Virus record (IMG/VR): IMGVR_UViG_3300027861_000221 | Location: 1-21,677 of that record | Length of the DNA: 21,677 nucleotides | DNA from: a virus | Reading direction: 5' to 3' (one strand) | Shown: positions 1,387 through 21,366 of the stretch, one piece after another | Layout of the letters: each line of letters starts with the position of its first letter | How positions within the stretch are numbered: position 1 is the stretch's first letter | The notes under the pieces: generated by a model | What the model was told of the DNA's origin: nothing | Databases searched by the model: none | Seen by the model: the letters and a program-made list of their open reading frames with translations, nothing else | Position numbers and translations under genes: made by a program

Positions 1387-1535
1387 TGGAGATATTGGAA
1401 ATGTATGGGACTGCGTTGCTGTGTAAAAATAGCAATGTAGTGAAATTGTGTGAGGCGATATTTAGTGAGTTCGATGAATGTGTGAACAGAGATGAGTGTT
1501 GTGAGAAATGTAAATATGAGGAGGAAATGGAGTGA
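1386..1535 (+). CDS. 49-residue cysteine-rich protein
   Basis: A 49-codon frame starts in a TAATG junction. Six cysteines (C13, C22, C32, C38, C39, C42) end in a C-C-x2-C cluster, followed by an acidic C-terminus (Y-E-E-E-M-E). No start-proximal ribosome site of the AGGAGG type is visible, so translation probably depends on coupling to the preceding gene. Its TGA stop overlaps the GTG start of the redoxin gene (GTGA), and its 3' end carries that gene's ribosome site (GAGGAGG). The Cys density and position next to a redoxin and nrdD suggest metal, Fe-S or disulfide chemistry. The family is not recognised. Confidence 0.5.
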   Translation: MEILEMYGTALLCKNSNVVKLCEAIFSEFDECVNRDECCEKCKYEEEME

Positions 1536-1765
1536 AGGTTGAAGTTTATGGTAAAAAACAATGTACTCAATGTATCAATATAAAAGCAGATTTGGACGCA
1601 TTAGGATGTTCATACACTTATTGTGAGAACGAGGCTACATTGAATGGTAAAGCGTTGGAATTAAGAGAAAAGGGTGTGTTGATAGAAATGATTGCACCTA
1701 TAGTAGTAGTGAACGGTATTCAAGTGAAACATAGAAATATAAAACACACATTAGGAGGAGAATAA
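1532..1765 (+). CDS. Glutaredoxin/NrdH-like redoxin
   Basis: The 77-residue product has the thioredoxin fold of glutaredoxins: beta-strand K-V-E-V-Y, redox motif C11-T-Q-C14 at the start of the first helix, and the cis-proline signature A-P-I-V-V-V-N-G (P56). Such proteins pass electrons through a dithiol/disulfide cycle. It starts at GTG 1532, overlapping the previous stop, with GAGGAGG upstream. It lies five bases ahead of nrdD, as NrdH-type redoxins commonly lie beside reductase genes. Class III reductases usually take electrons from formate, but subfamilies using thioredoxin or glutaredoxin-like donors are known, so a role as NrdD reductant is plausible. Two further cysteines (C26, C31) lie outside the active site. 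Confidence 0.85.
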   Translation: MKVEVYGKKQCTQCINIKADLDALGCSYTYCENEATLNGKALELREKGVLIEMIAPIVVVNGIQVKHRNIKHTLGGE

Positions 1766-1769
1766 TTGT

Positions 1770-3881
1770 ATGAGATTAGAGCATAGTTTAGATAGAGACT
1801 TTGAAGCTGTATACAAGAATATAGGCGAGGAGTTTTTAAAAATAGAAGCTATTGATGCCGACAGTATGAATGTAGGAGATAGGAGAAGCAAATATCATCA
1901 AAACAAAAAGATAGCTGGGGAAGAAAATGCCAATGTCGGCAACAATAAAAACCCCAATAATAGAGAAGGTGTTTTGTATGAGCCTCTTAGAAAAATTGAC
2001 TCCTACAATGTCTTATATGAGAAAATAAAAGATAAATATGGGTTGGAAGTTGGAAACGAAGCTATTAAGGAGATGTTATCGGGTAGCTTGTTGATGAATG
2101 ATTCTGACGGTTCAGATCAAAGATATTGTATAGCAATGTCGGCACACTCTTTAGTGAATAAAGGTAGAGACTATGTAACAGATGTTCCCAATACGAATCC
2201 AAAGCACTTTAGGAGCTATCTTCATACTTGTGTCGAGCAGATAATGCAAATGAGCATGGAATTTAAAGGGGCGACGGTAATTTATGATATACTTATCTTC
2301 CTAGCCGGGTTTACAAAGCCAGTAAGAGATTATAAACACAAATCTTTCGATGAGTTAGATTATGAAATGTATATAAAGTTTGCAATCTCGGAATTGATAA
2401 ACCCATACAAAGATGAAGATAAATGGGAAGCTGAACTAAGAGAGAAGACTAATACTACATCAGAATTAATAGACTATACGTTCGATTATTGGATAAGGAA
2501 TGAGCTACAGGGAGTGGTGTTGATACTTAATAATAAATATCGCAACGCTTCCCAAAGTCCGTTTGTAAATTTCTCCCTGTTTTCTCCGAGAGTTTTAGAT
2601 GGTCAATTTGATTATTTCAGATATCCAAATGGAGAAAAAATACAAAATTATATAAGGGAAATAACAAGAATACAAGAAATATTTGCTGAATTTTTCAGTC
2701 AAGGAATACAGGGGAGAGTTAGAGATATTGATGGAAACCTAACAGACAAGAAATTAACTAAGCTAGTTCCGTTTCCCGTAGTAACTCTATCGAAGCCAAA
2801 TGACGATATAGGTTCAGAACACCTTCTTGGAGAAGACAATAGATTTATAGATAAGATAGAGAGGTTGTTTAGTAAATACCACAACACGAATATATATAAA
2901 GGCGTAAAGCTTGCACTTTGTTGTAGATTACTTACAGAGAGTCACGAAAAAGTCAATCATACTACCGAGATGTCGTCATTAGGAGTTGTTACCAATGCCA
3001 CGAGTTATGATGCAGTAGGCTCTTTGAGGGTAGTAGCATTGGGATTGCCTAGTATAGCTTTACAATTGAGTGAAAATGATAGAAATATAGAAAATTATTT
3101 AAAAGTTTTGGACGTAAAGTTAGATTTAGTAGTCAAGATTTTAAATTCACAAAGAAGTCTGATAGAAGACAGAACCAACGAAAACTTCTTTGACTTCACG
3201 GAAAAACAAGGCGTAAAGAATGACAAATTGGCATCCACTATTGGAGGGTTGGGTTTATACGAGGCTGTCAAATTATTAACTGGTTCTGAATGGGGGGAAA
3301 CTTACACGCAATATGAATTAGATATTGCCAATGAAATATTAAAAGCTGTAGATGCAAAATGTGCTCAAGCGAGCAAAGCTACTGGAAAAATATTTAACAT
3401 GGAATTAAGTATTCCGGGAGAGTCATCAGCTAAGAGATTGCAAAAGAGAGACGTTCTTAATTTTGGTAACGAAGTTAATTATAAGGAATTGAGTAACCAG
3501 TTTTTACCTGCGACAATTGATACTACCATAAATGAAAAGCTTAAAGTTGAAAACGAGTTATGCAAATATGTTCCGTCAACTACAATAGCTCACTTGAATA
3601 TAGATGTGGAACTGTCAGAGGAACAAACTGTTCAGTTACATAAAAAAATAAGTGAGGCTTATCCAAATCTAAGTCACTATGCGTTTAATCCCATAACTTA
3701 CCTATGTGAAGACGGGCACTTGAATACGACTTCAACAGATGATGGGTTGTGTATTGAATGTGGTGGGAAAATAGTTGATAGGAGCACAAGAAGTATCGGA
3801 TACATAAGATCTATAGATTATGAGTTCGGAAAAAACAGAAAAGATGAACAAAGTAGAAGGACTTACTACAAATTAAAATAA
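1770..3881 (+). CDS. nrdD: Anaerobic (class III) ribonucleoside-triphosphate reductase
   Basis: Reduces ribonucleotides to deoxyribonucleotides using a glycyl radical, which oxygen destroys. The 703-residue length fits the family. Visible signatures are Y-C-I-A-M-S-A (C120, one candidate thiol), S-Q-S-P-F-V-N-F-S near residue 262, L-A-L-C-C-R-L (C384/C385, the thiyl-radical finger-loop cysteine) and, at the end, R-S-I-G-Y-I-R with G677 as radical glycine. Ahead of that glycine is a metal-binding knot with C646, C661 and C664; the usual fourth Cys is absent, and H650 in C-E-D-G-H may replace it. The N-terminal 60 residues are polar with many Asn and Lys. The activase follows after eight bases and a redoxin precedes. 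It supplies dNTPs for phage replication in an anaerobic host. Confidence 0.93.
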   Translation: MRLEHSLDRDFEAVYKNIGEEFLKIEAIDADSMNVGDRRSKYHQNKKIAGEENANVGNNKNPNNREGVLYEPLRKIDSYNVLYEKIKDKYGLEVGNEAIKEMLSGSLLMNDSDGSDQRYCIAMSAHSLVNKGRDYVTDVPNTNPKHFRSYLHTCVEQIMQMSMEFKGATVIYDILIFLAGFTKPVRDYKHKSFDELDYEMYIKFAISELINPYKDEDKWEAELREKTNTTSELIDYTFDYWIRNELQGVVLILNNKYRNASQSPFVNFSLFSPRVLDGQFDYFRYPNGEKIQNYIREITRIQEIFAEFFSQGIQGRVRDIDGNLTDKKLTKLVPFPVVTLSKPNDDIGSEHLLGEDNRFIDKIERLFSKYHNTNIYKGVKLALCCRLLTESHEKVNHTTEMSSLGVVTNATSYDAVGSLRVVALGLPSIALQLSENDRNIENYLKVLDVKLDLVVKILNSQRSLIEDRTNENFFDFTEKQGVKNDKLASTIGGLGLYEAVKLLTGSEWGETYTQYELDIANEILKAVDAKCAQASKATGKIFNMELSIPGESSAKRLQKRDVLNFGNEVNYKELSNQFLPATIDTTINEKLKVENELCKYVPSTTIAHLNIDVELSEEQTVQLHKKISEAYPNLSHYAFNPITYLCEDGHLNTTSTDDGLCIECGGKIVDRSTRSIGYIRSIDYEFGKNRKDEQSRRTYYKLK

Positions 3882-3889
3882 AATATAAA

Positions 3890-4357
3890 GTGATAGAGGA
3901 GAACAATTTAAACCATTATTATAAAAACGGTTTGTTGATAGCCACTGTTAATTGTGATTGGAAATGTCTCAAAGAGAGCAATCTCTCTTTGGATGTTTGC
4001 CAAAACAGTCACACTAACAAAATGAAGACTAAAACTATAGAAGTTTCTAAGTTAGTGTGTATGTTTGAAGAAAACCTGATGTCTGATTGTGTTATATTTG
4101 CTGGACTCGAACCTATGCTCCAAATTGAAGAGATTGTAAAATTCATAGAAGTGTTTAGAGTGAGCAATGATTCGGATGTGATAATATATACAGGTTATTA
4201 TAAGAAAGAAATAGAAGATACAGTGAACAGATTGAAAAAATATGATAATATCATTATTAAGTTTGGAAGATTCATACCTAACGTAGATAGTGTATATGAC
4301 AACGTGTTGAAAATAAAATTAGTTAGCGGCAATCAATATGCTGAGAAGATAAGCTAA
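3890..4357 (+). CDS. nrdG: Anaerobic ribonucleotide reductase activase, radical-SAM type
   Basis: NrdG enzymes use a 4Fe-4S cluster and S-adenosylmethionine to make the glycyl radical on NrdD. The 155-residue length is typical. Cysteines C22, C26 and C37 give C-x3-C-x10-C instead of the classical C-x3-C-x2-C, but the third ends in C-Q-N-S as in many activases. A G-L-E-P (72-75) corresponds to the SAM-binding GGEP motif. The C-terminal pattern (I-I-K-F-G-R-F-I-P and the N-Q-Y-A-E-K-I-S end) resembles a clostridial NrdG-like subfamily as I remember it. The start is uncertain: GTG 3890 has no clear ribosome site, while GAGGAGAA (3896-3903) lies just inside the gene, and a downstream start such as TTG 3932 would shorten the protein. 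It lies directly behind nrdD. Confidence 0.8.
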   Translation: MIEENNLNHYYKNGLLIATVNCDWKCLKESNLSLDVCQNSHTNKMKTKTIEVSKLVCMFEENLMSDCVIFAGLEPMLQIEEIVKFIEVFRVSNDSDVIIYTGYYKKEIEDTVNRLKKYDNIIIKFGRFIPNVDSVYDNVLKIKLVSGNQYAEKIS

Positions 4358-4409: not shown

Positions 4410-5033
4410 TTGACAAAAGTTAAATTAGAGAATGAATTAGTAATATTCACAGAGGTAGTAAACGCCATACAAGCTATGAGAACGTGTTATAGCTCAAACG
4501 ATAAATCAGACTCAAGGGGTTTGTATCTTGGCGAAAAGGATAAGGATTTATTAAGAAATGCTGTTAAAATTGGACACTTTACTCCTTTAGAGTTTATAAC
4601 ATTTACATTTTCAATAGAGGATATGACGAGACTGGTGCTTCAGGAATTGGCACGCCACAGAACGCAAGTATTGAATATTCAATCAACGAGATACACTTTG
4701 AAGAGAATGAAAGATGATGTGCGTGATAATCTTTCCAAGTATTTTTACACAGAATTGCCTCACTATGATGAATATTTGAATATGATATTCGATTTTATTG
4801 AGGAGAAGGATTTGTGGAGCTTACCTAATGATAAATTGAAGGCTTATTTTCCAGAGACATTATATTGTAAAGGTTATATGAAAGTTAATTTAAAGAATTA
4901 CTTCAACTTTTACAAATTGAGGTCAAGCGATAAAGCCCACTATTTAATAAGAGAGTTGGCTGATGCCACATATGACTCACTTCCACCTTTCCCAAAAGAG
5001 TTAGTTGATATTTTTATGGAGAACAATGGGTAA
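4410..5033 (+). CDS. thyX: Flavin-dependent thymidylate synthase
   Basis: Converts dUMP to dTMP using FAD, NADPH and methylene-tetrahydrofolate, with no need for a separate dihydrofolate reductase. The diagnostic motif is A-R-H-R-T-Q-V-L-N-I-Q-S-T-R-Y (RHR at 82-84). The classical form is RHRxxS-x(n)-S-x-R; here Val stands at the first Ser position, while the second Ser and the following Arg are kept. G-H-F-T-P-L-E-F (residues 54-61) matches the conserved GHxSPxEH-type segment. At 207 residues it is near the short end of the family. It starts at TTG 4410 behind GGAGGAG. It follows the reductase genes and overlaps the next small gene, forming a dNTP supply block with the dUTPase further right. 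Confidence 0.92.
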   Translation: MTKVKLENELVIFTEVVNAIQAMRTCYSSNDKSDSRGLYLGEKDKDLLRNAVKIGHFTPLEFITFTFSIEDMTRLVLQELARHRTQVLNIQSTRYTLKRMKDDVRDNLSKYFYTELPHYDEYLNMIFDFIEEKDLWSLPNDKLKAYFPETLYCKGYMKVNLKNYFNFYKLRSSDKAHYLIRELADATYDSLPPFPKELVDIFMENNG

Positions 5034-18027: not shown

Positions 18028-18246
18028 ATGGCTTTAGACAACATAAATAACCCTAAACACTATGGTGGGTGCGATGCGGTGTATGAGGCAATTAAAGTAA
18101 TTGAAGCTTGGAACTTAGGGTTTAATTTAGGAAACACTGTTAAGTATATAAGTAGAGCAGGTAAAAAGGATAAAAATAAAGAAGTTGAGGATTTGAAAAA
18201 GGCTGTTTATTACTTAAATAGACACATTAAAAATTTAGAGAGCTAA
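18028..18246 (+). CDS. DUF3310 protein
   Basis: The 72-residue product matches the DUF3310 pattern closely: I-N-N-P-K-H-Y near the start, then V-I-E-A-W-N-L-G-F-N-L-G-N-T-V-K-Y-I-S-R-A-G-K (in parts) and D-L-K-K-A-V-Y-Y-L-N-R-H-I at the end. The domain is frequent in phages of Gram-positive bacteria, and it also occurs in T7 gp1.7, a nucleotide kinase. On its own its biochemical role is not settled. It starts one base after the previous stop with AAAGGAGG upstream. Its place behind dut fits a nucleotide-metabolism block. Confidence 0.9.
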   Translation: MALDNINNPKHYGGCDAVYEAIKVIEAWNLGFNLGNTVKYISRAGKKDKNKEVEDLKKAVYYLNRHIKNLES

Positions 18247-18271: not shown

Positions 18272-19786
18272 ATGACAAAGGTTTTTAAATTAATAGCATT
18301 AACGGAAGACAATGAAGACACTGGTAGCGTTTTATATTACAAAAGTAAGAAGAAAATGTGTAGCGAATTGAATCTCACAGAGAGAGTTATATCGGCTACC
18401 ACAACTAAGTATCGTGAGAAGTATAATAAGCTTACAAACGAAGTTAAGCTTGTGCGTATGAATCCACGCTATCAGCATAAAGGGTTTAGATTGGAGATTT
18501 TGAAGGTTGATGATTTGAGCGAGTACAAACTTGAAGATTATGATGTGGAAAATGTTGTTGGAAAGGAAGAGAGAAAGCCTAAGTTTACCGAAAGTGAAAA
18601 TGGATATGTTGTTCACGGCAAATTGAGGAATGTTACTATAACTAAGGATGAGCTTAGAAATATTAAAAATATTTACTGCACTCATAAGATGACAATAAAT
18701 AAAACAGCATTAGAAGTTGGATTAGTTAGAGAAGAATTAACGTTGATATTATCAGCGTTCTCAATAACTAAGGACGACATACCTTTTATAGATGATGACG
18801 TGGTTGATATGTCTGCAGAAGAAATGGCTGAAATTACTAGGTTGGAGAAGAAGAGAAGTTACTTTAGGAAGTTGGAAGATAATAAAATTAAAGATATGGA
18901 GAAAGAGTTGAAAAGACTTCATAGGAATAATTTTGTATTTGAGAACGCTGTTGAACAATTAGCAAATATAACCCTTCCCAAGCCTAATTATTGTGAATCA
19001 CAAGGTAGTAATGCTAATAAAACTATGTTAATCAACTTAGCAGACATTCACGCTGGAGCAAAGTTTCAAGTTGTAGGAAATTCTTATAGCTTGGATATAA
19101 TGAAACAGAGATTTGCAAAGTTTACAGCGGATATATTAAAAAGGTTAGATGTGTATGATGTAGACAAAATAATCATATGCAACCTTGGAGATACAGTGAG
19201 TGGATTGGTTCATGTCGCCAATAGAGTTGCGAGTGAAGTTGGTGTAAACGTGGCATTGGTTGAAGTTATTGAACAAATAGGAATGTTAATAAAAACCTTA
19301 TCAGAAGTAACTAATCTCCCTATTGATTACCGAAACACGTTAGGTAACCATTCAAGGTTTGTGCCTAATAAGACTGAAAATATAACAGATGAGAATATGG
19401 AAACGTTGATACCATTTAGTTTAGACTTAATGTTTAAGAATTATGAGAATGTAAATATTTATAAAGCTAAAGCAGTTGATGAGTTTATGTTGTATGGAGA
19501 GCCAATAGCACTACATCACGGCGATCAATTTAGAGATAACAGAAAGCTTATGGCAAGCAGAAATAAGTTTTACCGTTTAATATATCAAGGACATTTTCAC
19601 AACTTTGATATTACTACTTTAAATGGAACGGAAATTGTCCAAGTGGGAACTATGATGGGGAGTGATGACTATGCAAGTAGCAAGCAGTTATACAGCAGAC
19701 CTATGCAATTAATAACTATAGTTGATTCAGAGTGGAATATTGCACATTATCCATCATACTTTAAAACAGAAGGGGTTGATGTCTAA
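18272..19786 (+). CDS. Calcineurin-like metallophosphoesterase (SbcD/Mre11-like) with long N-terminus
   Basis: The C-terminal half (about 250-504) carries the full two-metal phosphoesterase set: L-A-D258-I-H260-A-G, N-L-G-D307-T-V-S-G, T-L-G-N359-H360, A-L-H-H416-G-D and G-H441-F-H443-N-F. This arrangement fits phage enzymes related to SbcD/Mre11 nucleases that trim DNA ends, but a protein or nucleotide phosphatase is also possible. Residues 1-240 are unusual in size: a charged, partly helical region including I-N-K-T-A-L-E-V-G-L (about 140-149), which reads like a helix-turn-helix, then a likely coiled coil (about 188-225). No SbcC partner is in the window. ATG 18272 lies 11 bases after GAGGAGG. 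Its stop overlaps the next start. Confidence 0.85.
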   Translation: MTKVFKLIALTEDNEDTGSVLYYKSKKKMCSELNLTERVISATTTKYREKYNKLTNEVKLVRMNPRYQHKGFRLEILKVDDLSEYKLEDYDVENVVGKEERKPKFTESENGYVVHGKLRNVTITKDELRNIKNIYCTHKMTINKTALEVGLVREELTLILSAFSITKDDIPFIDDDVVDMSAEEMAEITRLEKKRSYFRKLEDNKIKDMEKELKRLHRNNFVFENAVEQLANITLPKPNYCESQGSNANKTMLINLADIHAGAKFQVVGNSYSLDIMKQRFAKFTADILKRLDVYDVDKIIICNLGDTVSGLVHVANRVASEVGVNVALVEVIEQIGMLIKTLSEVTNLPIDYRNTLGNHSRFVPNKTENITDENMETLIPFSLDLMFKNYENVNIYKAKAVDEFMLYGEPIALHHGDQFRDNRKLMASRNKFYRLIYQGHFHNFDITTLNGTEIVQVGTMMGSDDYASSKQLYSRPMQLITIVDSEWNIAHYPSYFKTEGVDV

Positions 19787-20031: not shown

Positions 20032-20291
20032 AATTAATGAAGAAACTTAGAATGTTGGTGGGAAATGACAATCATTTCTCGTCTGTGATTTATGATGATT
20101 GTATTATATTTGAATTATGGGAAGTCGAAGTACCTTTGATATTCACTAAAGATATGTTATATTTGGACTGTGAACTTTACGACTACAAGCTATATCCCAA
20201 TATGATAGATGATATTCAGACAGCACTTGAATATATAGAAGAAGCTAGAGGGGAGTTAATAGAGTTGTTGGAGGTTGGAGATGGAAAATAA
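20025..20291 (+). CDS. Hypothetical protein, 88 aa
   Basis: I choose ATG 20025, six bases after GGAGG (20014-20018), over the TTG at 20019. The acidic product has a strand-rich first half (S-V-I-Y-D-D-C-I-I-F-E-L-W) and an amphipathic C-terminal helix (D-D-I-Q-T-A-L-E-Y-I-E-E-A). It overlaps both neighbours, by seven bases before and 11 after, so its translation is likely coupled with that of the kinase-nucleotidase. Family not recognised. Confidence 0.75.
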   Translation: MLELMKKLRMLVGNDNHFSSVIYDDCIIFELWEVEVPLIFTKDMLYLDCELYDYKLYPNMIDDIQTALEYIEEARGELIELLEVGDGK

Positions 20292-21366
20292 AATATTTAT
20301 ACTACTTGGAGCAAGTGGTAGTGGTAAATCAGAATTATCAAAAGTTTTCAAAGAGTATGAAATAGCTGAACTAATATCGCATACTACACGCAAGAAAAGG
20401 GTTGGAGAGAGTGATAATGTTTATCATTTTGTAGATAAGAGTGAATTTGACAAAGTTGACTTCATAGAAAAGGTTGTTTACTCCAATAATCACTATGGGT
20501 TGTCTATGAATGAAGTAGAAGCTAAGCTTATGATTGGAGATGTGTTTACGATTATGGATGCTGTAGGAGTTAGTGAAATGAAAAAGTTATATGGCGATAG
20601 AGTTAAAGTTATATACATTTACACTCCAATGTCTGAATTGAAAAAGAGGATGCTGGCAAGAGGCGATGATGAAGTTTTGATTGATGCAAGACTTAATCAC
20701 GCTGTTGAAAAAGGCGAAATGAATAACTTTGATATTGCAGACTTAACTATATATAATATGAATTTAGAAATCGCTAAGCAATCATTAAGAGAGTTTATCA
20801 CTCCAACAATCTATATAGACTTAGACGAGGTAGTATTTAAAAGTGTTGAGAGGTTTGTTGAGATATATAATGTCTTACACGGTAAAAATTGTAATTATAA
20901 GAAAGTTTATGACTATGATTTCAGCCCAGCAATAAGTGAGTTAAGTAACATTGAAAAAACTTCTATCTTTAACACTGGAGAGTTTTACTTAGGGTGTGAT
21001 TTATATGAGGATTGTAAAAATGTCATCAATAAGCTTAACGAAGTGTATAATGTAAAGTTTTTAACCTTAGGAACTCATTGCAACAATAAGAATAAAATTA
21101 GCGTTATTGAGAATTTGTTTCCTAATATACCTATAATAAATCAATCAAGTAAGAATGTAGTTATGAGGAAACACTTTATCAATTATGGATTTAGAGATAT
21201 ATTAATTGATGACGTAGAGAGTAATCTCATTACAAGCGGTTGTCCAAACAAATTGTTATTTGCACCAAATGGAGAAAAGGCATACAATAGAAATTTTAGA
21301 GGGTTAAAGTGTAGTAGTTGGAAAGATATTTATAATATACTAAAAATAGAAGGAGATGATGCGTAG
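20281..21366 (+). CDS. Guanylate kinase fused to HAD 5'(3')-deoxyribonucleotidase
   Basis: Two complete-looking domains share one 361-residue chain (start ATG 20281, behind GGAGG at 20270). Residues 1-170 are a guanylate kinase: P-loop G10-A-S-G-S-G-K-S17, GMP-binding S33-H-T-T-R37-K-K-R40-V-G-E43, Y-H-F-V (48-51), N-H-Y-G (70-73) and D-A-V-G (93-96). Residues 175-361 are a HAD phosphatase of the 5'(3')-deoxyribonucleotidase type: I-D180-L-D182-E-V (nucleophile motif), F-L-T-L-G-T (260-265, motif 2), a Lys-bearing segment (291-297) and I-L-I-D310-D311-V (motif 3). One half phosphorylates nucleoside monophosphates, the other dephosphorylates them, so the combined role is not obvious. It may tune the dNMP pool. 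It overlaps genes on both sides. Confidence 0.85.
   Translation: MENKIFILLGASGSGKSELSKVFKEYEIAELISHTTRKKRVGESDNVYHFVDKSEFDKVDFIEKVVYSNNHYGLSMNEVEAKLMIGDVFTIMDAVGVSEMKKLYGDRVKVIYIYTPMSELKKRMLARGDDEVLIDARLNHAVEKGEMNNFDIADLTIYNMNLEIAKQSLREFITPTIYIDLDEVVFKSVERFVEIYNVLHGKNCNYKKVYDYDFSPAISELSNIEKTSIFNTGEFYLGCDLYEDCKNVINKLNEVYNVKFLTLGTHCNNKNKISVIENLFPNIPIINQSSKNVVMRKHFINYGFRDILIDDVESNLITSGCPNKLLFAPNGEKAYNRNFRGLKCSSWKDIYNILKIEGDDA

What the first reader, a model, noticed from the sequence alone, without database searches (positions are those of the whole stretch)
20281..21366. Guanylate kinase and 5'(3')-nucleotidase joined in one protein
Both active-site sets look complete, yet the two halves do opposite chemistry on nucleoside monophosphates: the kinase makes NDPs, the HAD domain returns NMPs to nucleosides. 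Such a fusion could be a futile cycle unless the domains differ in substrate. Possibilities are a pool editor that keeps dGMP and removes another nucleotide, a supplier for a modified base, or a counter-defence that removes a signalling or toxic nucleotide. I do not know this fusion as a described enzyme.
Basis: partly seen in the sequence, partly recalled or inferred. Interest (0 to 1): 0.65.

Follow-up and report, generated by a model that had tools for sequence, protein, structure and literature searches.

The report
Phage kinase–nucleotidase pair fused together
A phage gene really does join a guanylate kinase to a nucleotidase in one protein; in other phages the same two enzymes are made from neighbouring, often overlapping genes, so this looks like a natural fusion of an existing phage nucleotide-handling pair rather than a sequencing error or a wholly new kind of enzyme.

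Summary
ORF 20281-21366 encodes a 361-aa protein whose residues 4-174 are a guanylate-kinase domain and 176-354 an NT5C-type HAD 5'(3')-deoxyribonucleotidase domain, with almost no linker. A frameshift artefact is unlikely: the other frames are full of stops at the junction, and no usable start codon lies there for a separate HAD gene. Catalytic motifs are complete in both halves, and the two-domain model is confident (pLDDT 88). No second copy of the fusion was found in 50,697 phage records, about 400 Bacillota genomes or the IMG/VR loci recovered.

The new fact is the context. In unrelated phages an NMP kinase gene lies directly beside, usually overlapping, an NT5C gene. The kinase may be GMK-like, a deoxynucleoside-monophosphate kinase, or SPbeta's thymidylate-kinase-like YorR. 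In a scan made with GMK-like kinases alone, 11 of 13 loci (about 7 of 9 distinct) had NT5C next. So this is a fusion of a recurring operon pair in DNA-precursor modules.

Most likely it is a branch-point enzyme that keeps guanine nucleotides and discards other dNMPs. Substrates are untested.

The parts
20281..21366 (+). Fusion gene, guanylate kinase-like domain plus NT5C 5'(3')-deoxyribonucleotidase domain, 361 aa
   Evidence: ORF and translation; Pfam and PHROGs; two-domain model pLDDT 88.2, pTM 0.76
20281..20802 (+). Guanylate kinase-like domain, residues 1-174
   Evidence: Guanylate_kin 5.9e-14; VIA-align Z 23.2 to 7luy; motifs
20806..21342 (+). NT5C HAD nucleotidase domain, residues 176-354; D180, D182, T262, K297, D310, D311
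   Evidence: NT5C 1.7e-8; VIA-align Z 20.7 to 3bwv, about 17 to human mitochondrial deoxyribonucleotidase; alignment of phage homologues
17094..17546 (+). dUTPase, part of the DNA-precursor gene set
   Evidence: Pfam dUTPase 6.6e-20
18272..19786 (+). SbcD/metallophosphoesterase-type exonuclease upstream of the fusion, a possible source of dNMPs
   Evidence: phrog_284 exonuclease 2e-48
1532..1765 (+). Glutaredoxin/thioredoxin-like small protein (NrdH-like)
   Evidence: phrog_22 2.8e-6, Glutaredoxin 3.5e-4, below cut-off
1770..3881 (+). Anaerobic (class III) ribonucleotide reductase NrdD
   Evidence: NRDD 9.8e-58
3890..4357 (+). NrdG-like activase
   Evidence: Fer4_12 1.4e-5; phrog_626 2e-5
4410..5033 (+). 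ThyX, flavin-dependent thymidylate synthase
   Evidence: Thy1 1.6e-28

Best explanation
It is a bifunctional enzyme of the phage's DNA-precursor module, formed by fusing two genes that lie side by side in other phages. The N-terminal domain phosphorylates (d)GMP to (d)GDP (inferred from family and conserved residues). The C-terminal HAD domain hydrolyses 5'- or 3'-deoxynucleoside monophosphates to nucleosides through an aspartyl-phosphate (inferred from family and motifs). Both domains draw on the dNMP pool, fed in part by breakdown of host DNA by phage exonucleases. The kinase commits guanine nucleotides to dNTP synthesis; the nucleotidase discards other or surplus dNMPs, so the phage's own NrdD/ThyX/dUTPase pathway sets the pool. 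Because the domains are made together at 1:1, separation in time (possible where the two are separate genes) cannot prevent conflict here, so the domains should differ in substrate or be regulated. Shown: fusion, motifs, folds, recurrence of the gene pair. Inferred: substrates and the triage role.
For: Both domains are over family cut-offs with complete catalytic motifs. The model matches GMKs (Z 23.2) and deoxyribonucleotidases (3bwv Z 20.7; human mdN Z about 17). The same pair occurs unfused: L015 dut-gmk-NT5C with a 41-base overlap and 44% GMK identity; L010/L011/L012 thymidylate synthase - GMK-like - NT5C - nrdD; L049/L133 GMK-like - NT5C - nrdD, with thyX upstream in L049. A kinase-only scan: 11 of 13 loci, about 7 of 9 distinct, have NT5C as the next gene. 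NT5C also pairs with other NMP kinases: DNMK in L047, L143, Streptomyces phage SparkleGoddess (behind an exonuclease) and Microbacterium phage Big4; YorR-YorS in SPbeta. 8 of 20 NT5C groups are paired; binomial P about 3e-6 if adjacency by chance were 5% (groups are not fully independent). The window carries NrdD, an NrdG-like protein, ThyX, dUTPase and exonucleases. Precedent: T5 Dmp degrades dNMPs and remodels the dNTP pool (PMC12265719).
Against: No substrate has been tested. The GMK half is below the guanylate kinase equivalog cut-off and has Leu at a Thr position, so its base preference could have shifted. Mammalian NT5C enzymes prefer dUMP and dTMP (from memory); hydrolysing dUMP would compete with the phage's own ThyX, so the discarded nucleotide is unclear. 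Nucleotide genes cluster in phages, so adjacency may reflect general clustering rather than a joint reaction. Only one copy of the fusion is known.
Confidence: 0.52

Rival explanations
1. Neutral operon fusion: two enzymes that were already co-transcribed became one polypeptide; each works alone, with overlapping substrates, and the join has no function beyond equal dosage.
For: Unfused neighbours overlap by 4-50 bases, so loss of a stop plus a small indel can join them. The linker is minimal and only one fusion is known.
Against: The adjacency is kept across several kinase families and phage groups, which suggests that joint presence matters.
Confidence: 0.25
2. Modified-base supplier: the kinase activates an unusual dNMP and the nucleotidase removes its normal counterpart, as dUMP kinase and dTMP phosphatase do in PBS2-type phages (from memory).
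For: Same logic of one kinase and one phosphatase on dNMPs. Leu74 replaces a guanine-side Thr.
Against: No base-modification gene was recognised in this 21.7-kb record; ThyX and dUTPase point to ordinary thymine DNA. The GMK-type P-loop, S-x3-R-x2-R, Y, E and D residues are kept.
Confidence: 0.07
3. Nucleic-acid end healing, like T4 polynucleotide kinase/phosphatase, which also joins an N-terminal P-loop kinase to a C-terminal HAD phosphatase.
For: Same domain order; viral polynucleotide kinases align over both domains in BFVD. Weak phrog_505 match to the kinase half. DNA ligase-like genes lie near L010 to L012 (read from ORFs).
Against: Polynucleotide kinases match far less well (E about 1e-8 to 1e-6, rmsd 17-20 Angstrom) than GMK and nucleotidase entries. 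The kinase keeps the GMP-binding residues and the HAD half is closest to deoxyribonucleotidases.
Confidence: 0.04
4. Counter-defence: the nucleotidase removes a signalling or toxic nucleotide, or the pair shifts pools away from what a nucleotide-sensing defence detects.
For: Phage dNMP phosphatase state is read by at least one defence: dmp mutants of T5-like phages escape Clover (PMC12265719).
Against: There the phosphatase helps trigger the defence, and its mutation gives escape. The gene lies among replication and precursor genes, not in an anti-defence cluster.
Confidence: 0.05
5. Assembly or sequencing artefact that joins two genes.
For: A single record; unfused relatives exist in another frame (L015).
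Against: Stop-rich alternative frames and no usable separate start at the junction; both domains are modelled with high confidence.
Confidence: 0.03

Closest known systems
Phage and bacterial guanylate kinases (PF00625, phrog_1815; e.g. Lactococcus phage 949, C. difficile phage LIBA6276)
   Same: Fold, P-loop, most GMP-binding residues, 35-46% identity to phage members
   Different: Fused to a phosphatase; L74 in place of Thr; below the NCBI equivalog cut-off
NT5C 5'(3')-deoxyribonucleotidases (PF06941; 3bwv, human cdN/mdN, SPbeta YorS)
   Same: HAD fold with small cap and all four catalytic motifs
   Different: Only about 22% identity to 3bwv and about 15% to the human enzymes; joined to a kinase; substrate unknown
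T5 Dmp, deoxynucleoside 5'-monophosphatase
   Same: Role: a phage dNMP phosphatase beside phage dNTP-synthesis genes
   Different: Separate gene; not compared here by sequence
SPbeta yorR-yorS and Streptomyces phage dNMP kinase-phosphatase gene pairs
   Same: NMP kinase gene directly beside an NT5C gene
   Different: Two proteins, and the kinase is of another family
T4 polynucleotide kinase/phosphatase
   Same: N-terminal P-loop kinase and C-terminal HAD phosphatase in one chain
   Different: Different P-loop kinase and HAD families; acts on nucleic-acid ends

Membership tests
Guanylate kinase (PF00625) | Match over the curated Pfam cut-off | tested here: met
   52.6 bits against 25.2
Guanylate kinase (PF00625) | P-loop and GMP-phosphate residues S-x3-R-x2-R, Y, E, Y-G, D | tested here: met
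   S33, R37, R40, Y48, E63, Y72-G73, D93
Guanylate kinase equivalog (TIGR03263) | Score over the NCBI equivalog cut-off, a proxy for orthologous GMK function | tested here: not met
   92.9 bits against a cut-off of 160.45; it is filed as a member of the PF00625 family, not as this equivalog
Guanylate kinase (PF00625) | ATP-dependent phosphorylation of GMP/dGMP | not testable with these tools
   Needs an assay
NT5C 5'(3')-deoxyribonucleotidase (PF06941) | Match over the curated Pfam cut-off | tested here: met
   35.0 bits, and 36.9 for the half alone, against 24.8
NT5C 5'(3')-deoxyribonucleotidase (PF06941) | Four HAD motifs: DxD, S/T, K, DD | tested here: met
   D180/D182, T262, K297, D310/D311
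NT5C 5'(3')-deoxyribonucleotidase (PF06941) | Fold of the deoxyribonucleotidases | tested here: met
   Z 20.7 to 3bwv over 163 residues, rmsd 2.0; Z about 17 to human mdN
NT5C 5'(3')-deoxyribonucleotidase (PF06941) | Hydrolysis of dNMPs | not testable with these tools
   Needs an assay
T4 polynucleotide kinase/phosphatase | Pnk-type P-loop kinase family | tested here: inconclusive
   Kinase half matches Guanylate_kin strongly and phrog_505 only at 0.0037; VIA rows list no Pnkp among the best 50, which proves nothing

The most novel reading that the evidence does not exclude
Phages carry a general NMP-triage module: an NMP kinase (GMK, DNMK or TMK type, interchangeable) physically or functionally coupled to an NT5C nucleotidase, so that each dNMP is either committed to dNTP synthesis or discarded; this window holds its first fused form, which shows that the two act together.
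Probability: 0.3. Interest if true: 0.6.

Novelty: new variant of a known kind. Interest (0 to 1): 0.42.

Why it matters
Both enzymes are known one by one in phages, but the literature searched here does not describe them as a coupled unit. The fusion plus the recurring gene pairs give a concrete hypothesis about how phages steer the dNMP pool, and one protein with which to test it. It bears on why phages encode nucleotidases at all, and on how nucleotide-sensing defences read phage infection.

Tried and rejected
Exact-peptide scans of viral contigs with the fused protein and with a two-sequence NT5C alignment gave nothing. The apparent longer match MT836768 is a bacterial-type gmk followed by a short ORF and a nadD-like gene, not a fusion (assignment read from the translation). 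MT835883 (L008) is also chromosomal in look. A large mixed alignment put NT5C rows on the GMK half and was not used; A9 aligns both halves properly. Frameshift artefact: rejected on frames and start codons. Futile cycle: rejected on chemistry. Trees do not resolve whether the window's two halves come from an L015-like pair: support around the window rows is low and branches are long. Aeromonas PAc/2L372X NT5C neighbours (genes 0127/177) looked like candidate kinases but hit only unknown PHROGs. BFVD entry Q332I0 (305 aa) aligns over 339 columns but with 18 Angstrom rmsd; its identity was not established. Chains absent from the VIA list prove nothing. Caps limited the collection searches, and the pattern-based scans of viral contigs are not exhaustive.

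Full report
WHAT IS THERE. The window is a complete IMG/VR record of 21,677 bases with 34% GC. ORF 20281-21366 (+) encodes 361 aa. Pfam places Guanylate_kin on residues 4-174 (5.9e-14) and NT5C on 176-354 (1.7e-8), both over their cut-offs; PHROGs agree. The catalytic motifs of both halves are present: P-loop 10-17, S33/R37/R40/Y48/E63/Y72/D93 in the kinase; D180/D182, T262, K297, D310/D311 in the HAD half. Two reservations on the kinase: Leu74 takes the place of a Thr in the three solved bacterial GMKs aligned, and the NCBI equivalog score is 92.9 against 160.45. Substrate identity should therefore not be assumed.

ARTEFACT OR REAL. The reading frame is open throughout; the two other frames have 34 and 63 stops and are stop-rich at the junction, and the sequence shows no ATG, GTG or TTG in frame between residue 162 and the HAD nucleophile. 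A single indel or one misread stop would therefore not leave two sensible genes. An AlphaFold2 model from an alignment that covers both halves (A9) has mean pLDDT 88.2 and pTM 0.76. VIA-align gives Z 23.2 to a guanylate kinase (7luy), Z 20.7 to the deoxyribonucleotidase 3bwv over residues 174-358, and Z about 17 to human mitochondrial deoxyribonucleotidase. The relative placing of the domains was not judged, because no inter-domain error was reported.

IS THE FUSION FOUND ELSEWHERE. No record among 50,697 phages covers 80% of the query, even at E 10. In 398 Bacillota genomes about 75 NT5C matches lie in open frames no longer than 308 aa, too short for this fusion. Among the IMG/VR loci recovered here, none but the window is fused; those scans use short patterns and are not exhaustive.

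THE PAIR IS COMMON, UNFUSED. Reading the neighbours of the hits changed the picture. L015 (a 124-kb viral contig) has dut, gmk (44% identical to the window's) and NT5C in a row, the last two overlapping by 41 bases. L010, L011 and L012 have a thymidylate synthase gene (thyX, in L012 thyA by eye), then a diverged GMK-like kinase, NT5C and an nrdD-type gene. L048/L049/L050 and L133 have GMK-like kinase, NT5C and nrdD, with thyX upstream in L049. A scan made with the kinase alone, so not biased towards NT5C, gave 13 loci; in 11 (about 7 of 9 distinct) the next gene is NT5C, and in L162 and L167 it is not. The partner need not be GMK: DNMK-type kinases adjoin NT5C in L047, L143, Streptomyces phage SparkleGoddess (behind an exonuclease gene) and, in reverse order, Microbacterium phage Big4, and SPbeta yorR (thymidylate-kinase-like) adjoins yorS. 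The Streptomyces phage rows shown (28 such records match) carry the same annotated pair. Pairing is not universal: 12 of the 20 NT5C groups looked at lack it, among them Bp8p-C/Bobb, Culver, Kumao and pf16. Eight of twenty would be unlikely if adjacency by chance were 2-5% (P 3e-9 to 3e-6), but the groups are not independent and nucleotide genes cluster in phages anyway.

EVOLUTION. In the GMK tree the window falls near L013, L014, L015 and an Aneurinibacillus plasmid protein, apart from the starred clade of L049, L133, L010 and L012. In the NT5C tree window, L015, L047, L010 and L012 share one clade (93/97) although their kinases belong to two GMK clades and to DNMK. That fits a nucleotidase that keeps a kinase partner while the kinase type changes; the support is too low to prove it.

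MECHANISM. A kinase (NMP to NDP) and a nucleotidase (NMP to nucleoside) compete for one substrate pool; they are not forward and back reactions. The window has an anaerobic ribonucleotide reductase, an NrdG-like protein, ThyX, dUTPase and two exonuclease-type genes, so the setting is DNA-precursor supply. [quoted passage not shown] The best reading is a dNMP branch-point enzyme that retains guanine nucleotides and drops others. Fusion makes the two activities simultaneous, so separation must come from substrate choice or regulation. All of this step is inference; the identity of the discarded nucleotide is open, and dUMP or dTMP would sit badly with ThyX.

WHAT WAS NOT FOUND. No paper in the held library describes a guanylate kinase-deoxyribonucleotidase fusion. 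Two Bacillus phage papers list both enzymes as separate gene products (PMC7685451, PMC10454425). No base-modification or anti-defence gene was recognised in the window.

VERDICT. Observation confirmed; interpretation partly supported. A new variant of known enzyme families: the first fused case seen here of a recurring phage kinase-nucleotidase pair.

Noticed in passing
L051 4995-6017 (Aneurinibacillus sp. Ricciae_BoGa-3 plasmid): Another GMK fusion: residues 4-179 are Guanylate_kin (1.9e-20), followed by about 160 residues that look CYTH/triphosphatase-like by eye (EVERKFLVKKLPEL); no Pfam hit for that part.
   Followed up: partly
L138 4992-8350: NT5C gene directly followed by a 918-aa protein with an RNA-dependent RNA polymerase-type domain (PF05183, 2.3e-21), as in crAss-like phages.
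   Followed up: partly
L134 4983-8672: NT5C gene directly followed by a PolC/DnaE-type DNA polymerase III alpha gene.
   Followed up: no
window 18028-18246: 72-aa DUF3310 protein (4.9e-15), common in phage replication modules, between dUTPase and the exonuclease.
   Followed up: no
L153 1512-3469 (Pseudomonas phage pf16): NT5C gene preceded by a macro-domain protein (6.2e-5) and followed by a 4Fe-4S/radical-SAM-like protein.
   Followed up: no
L009 2393-3004 and L154 1269-1865 (Aeromonas phages PAc and 2L372X): An unknown protein (phrog_4521) directly precedes NT5C near thymidylate synthase; it could be an unrecognised partner.
   Followed up: partly
L013 (ORF in the stretch upstream of 3453): The metallophosphoesterase near gmk seems to carry an inserted intein-like segment (DGACFDDKTEILTKDGWKLFSELN ... 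SHNSYALSY) compared with the intact copy in L014 5404-6612 (translations).
   Followed up: no
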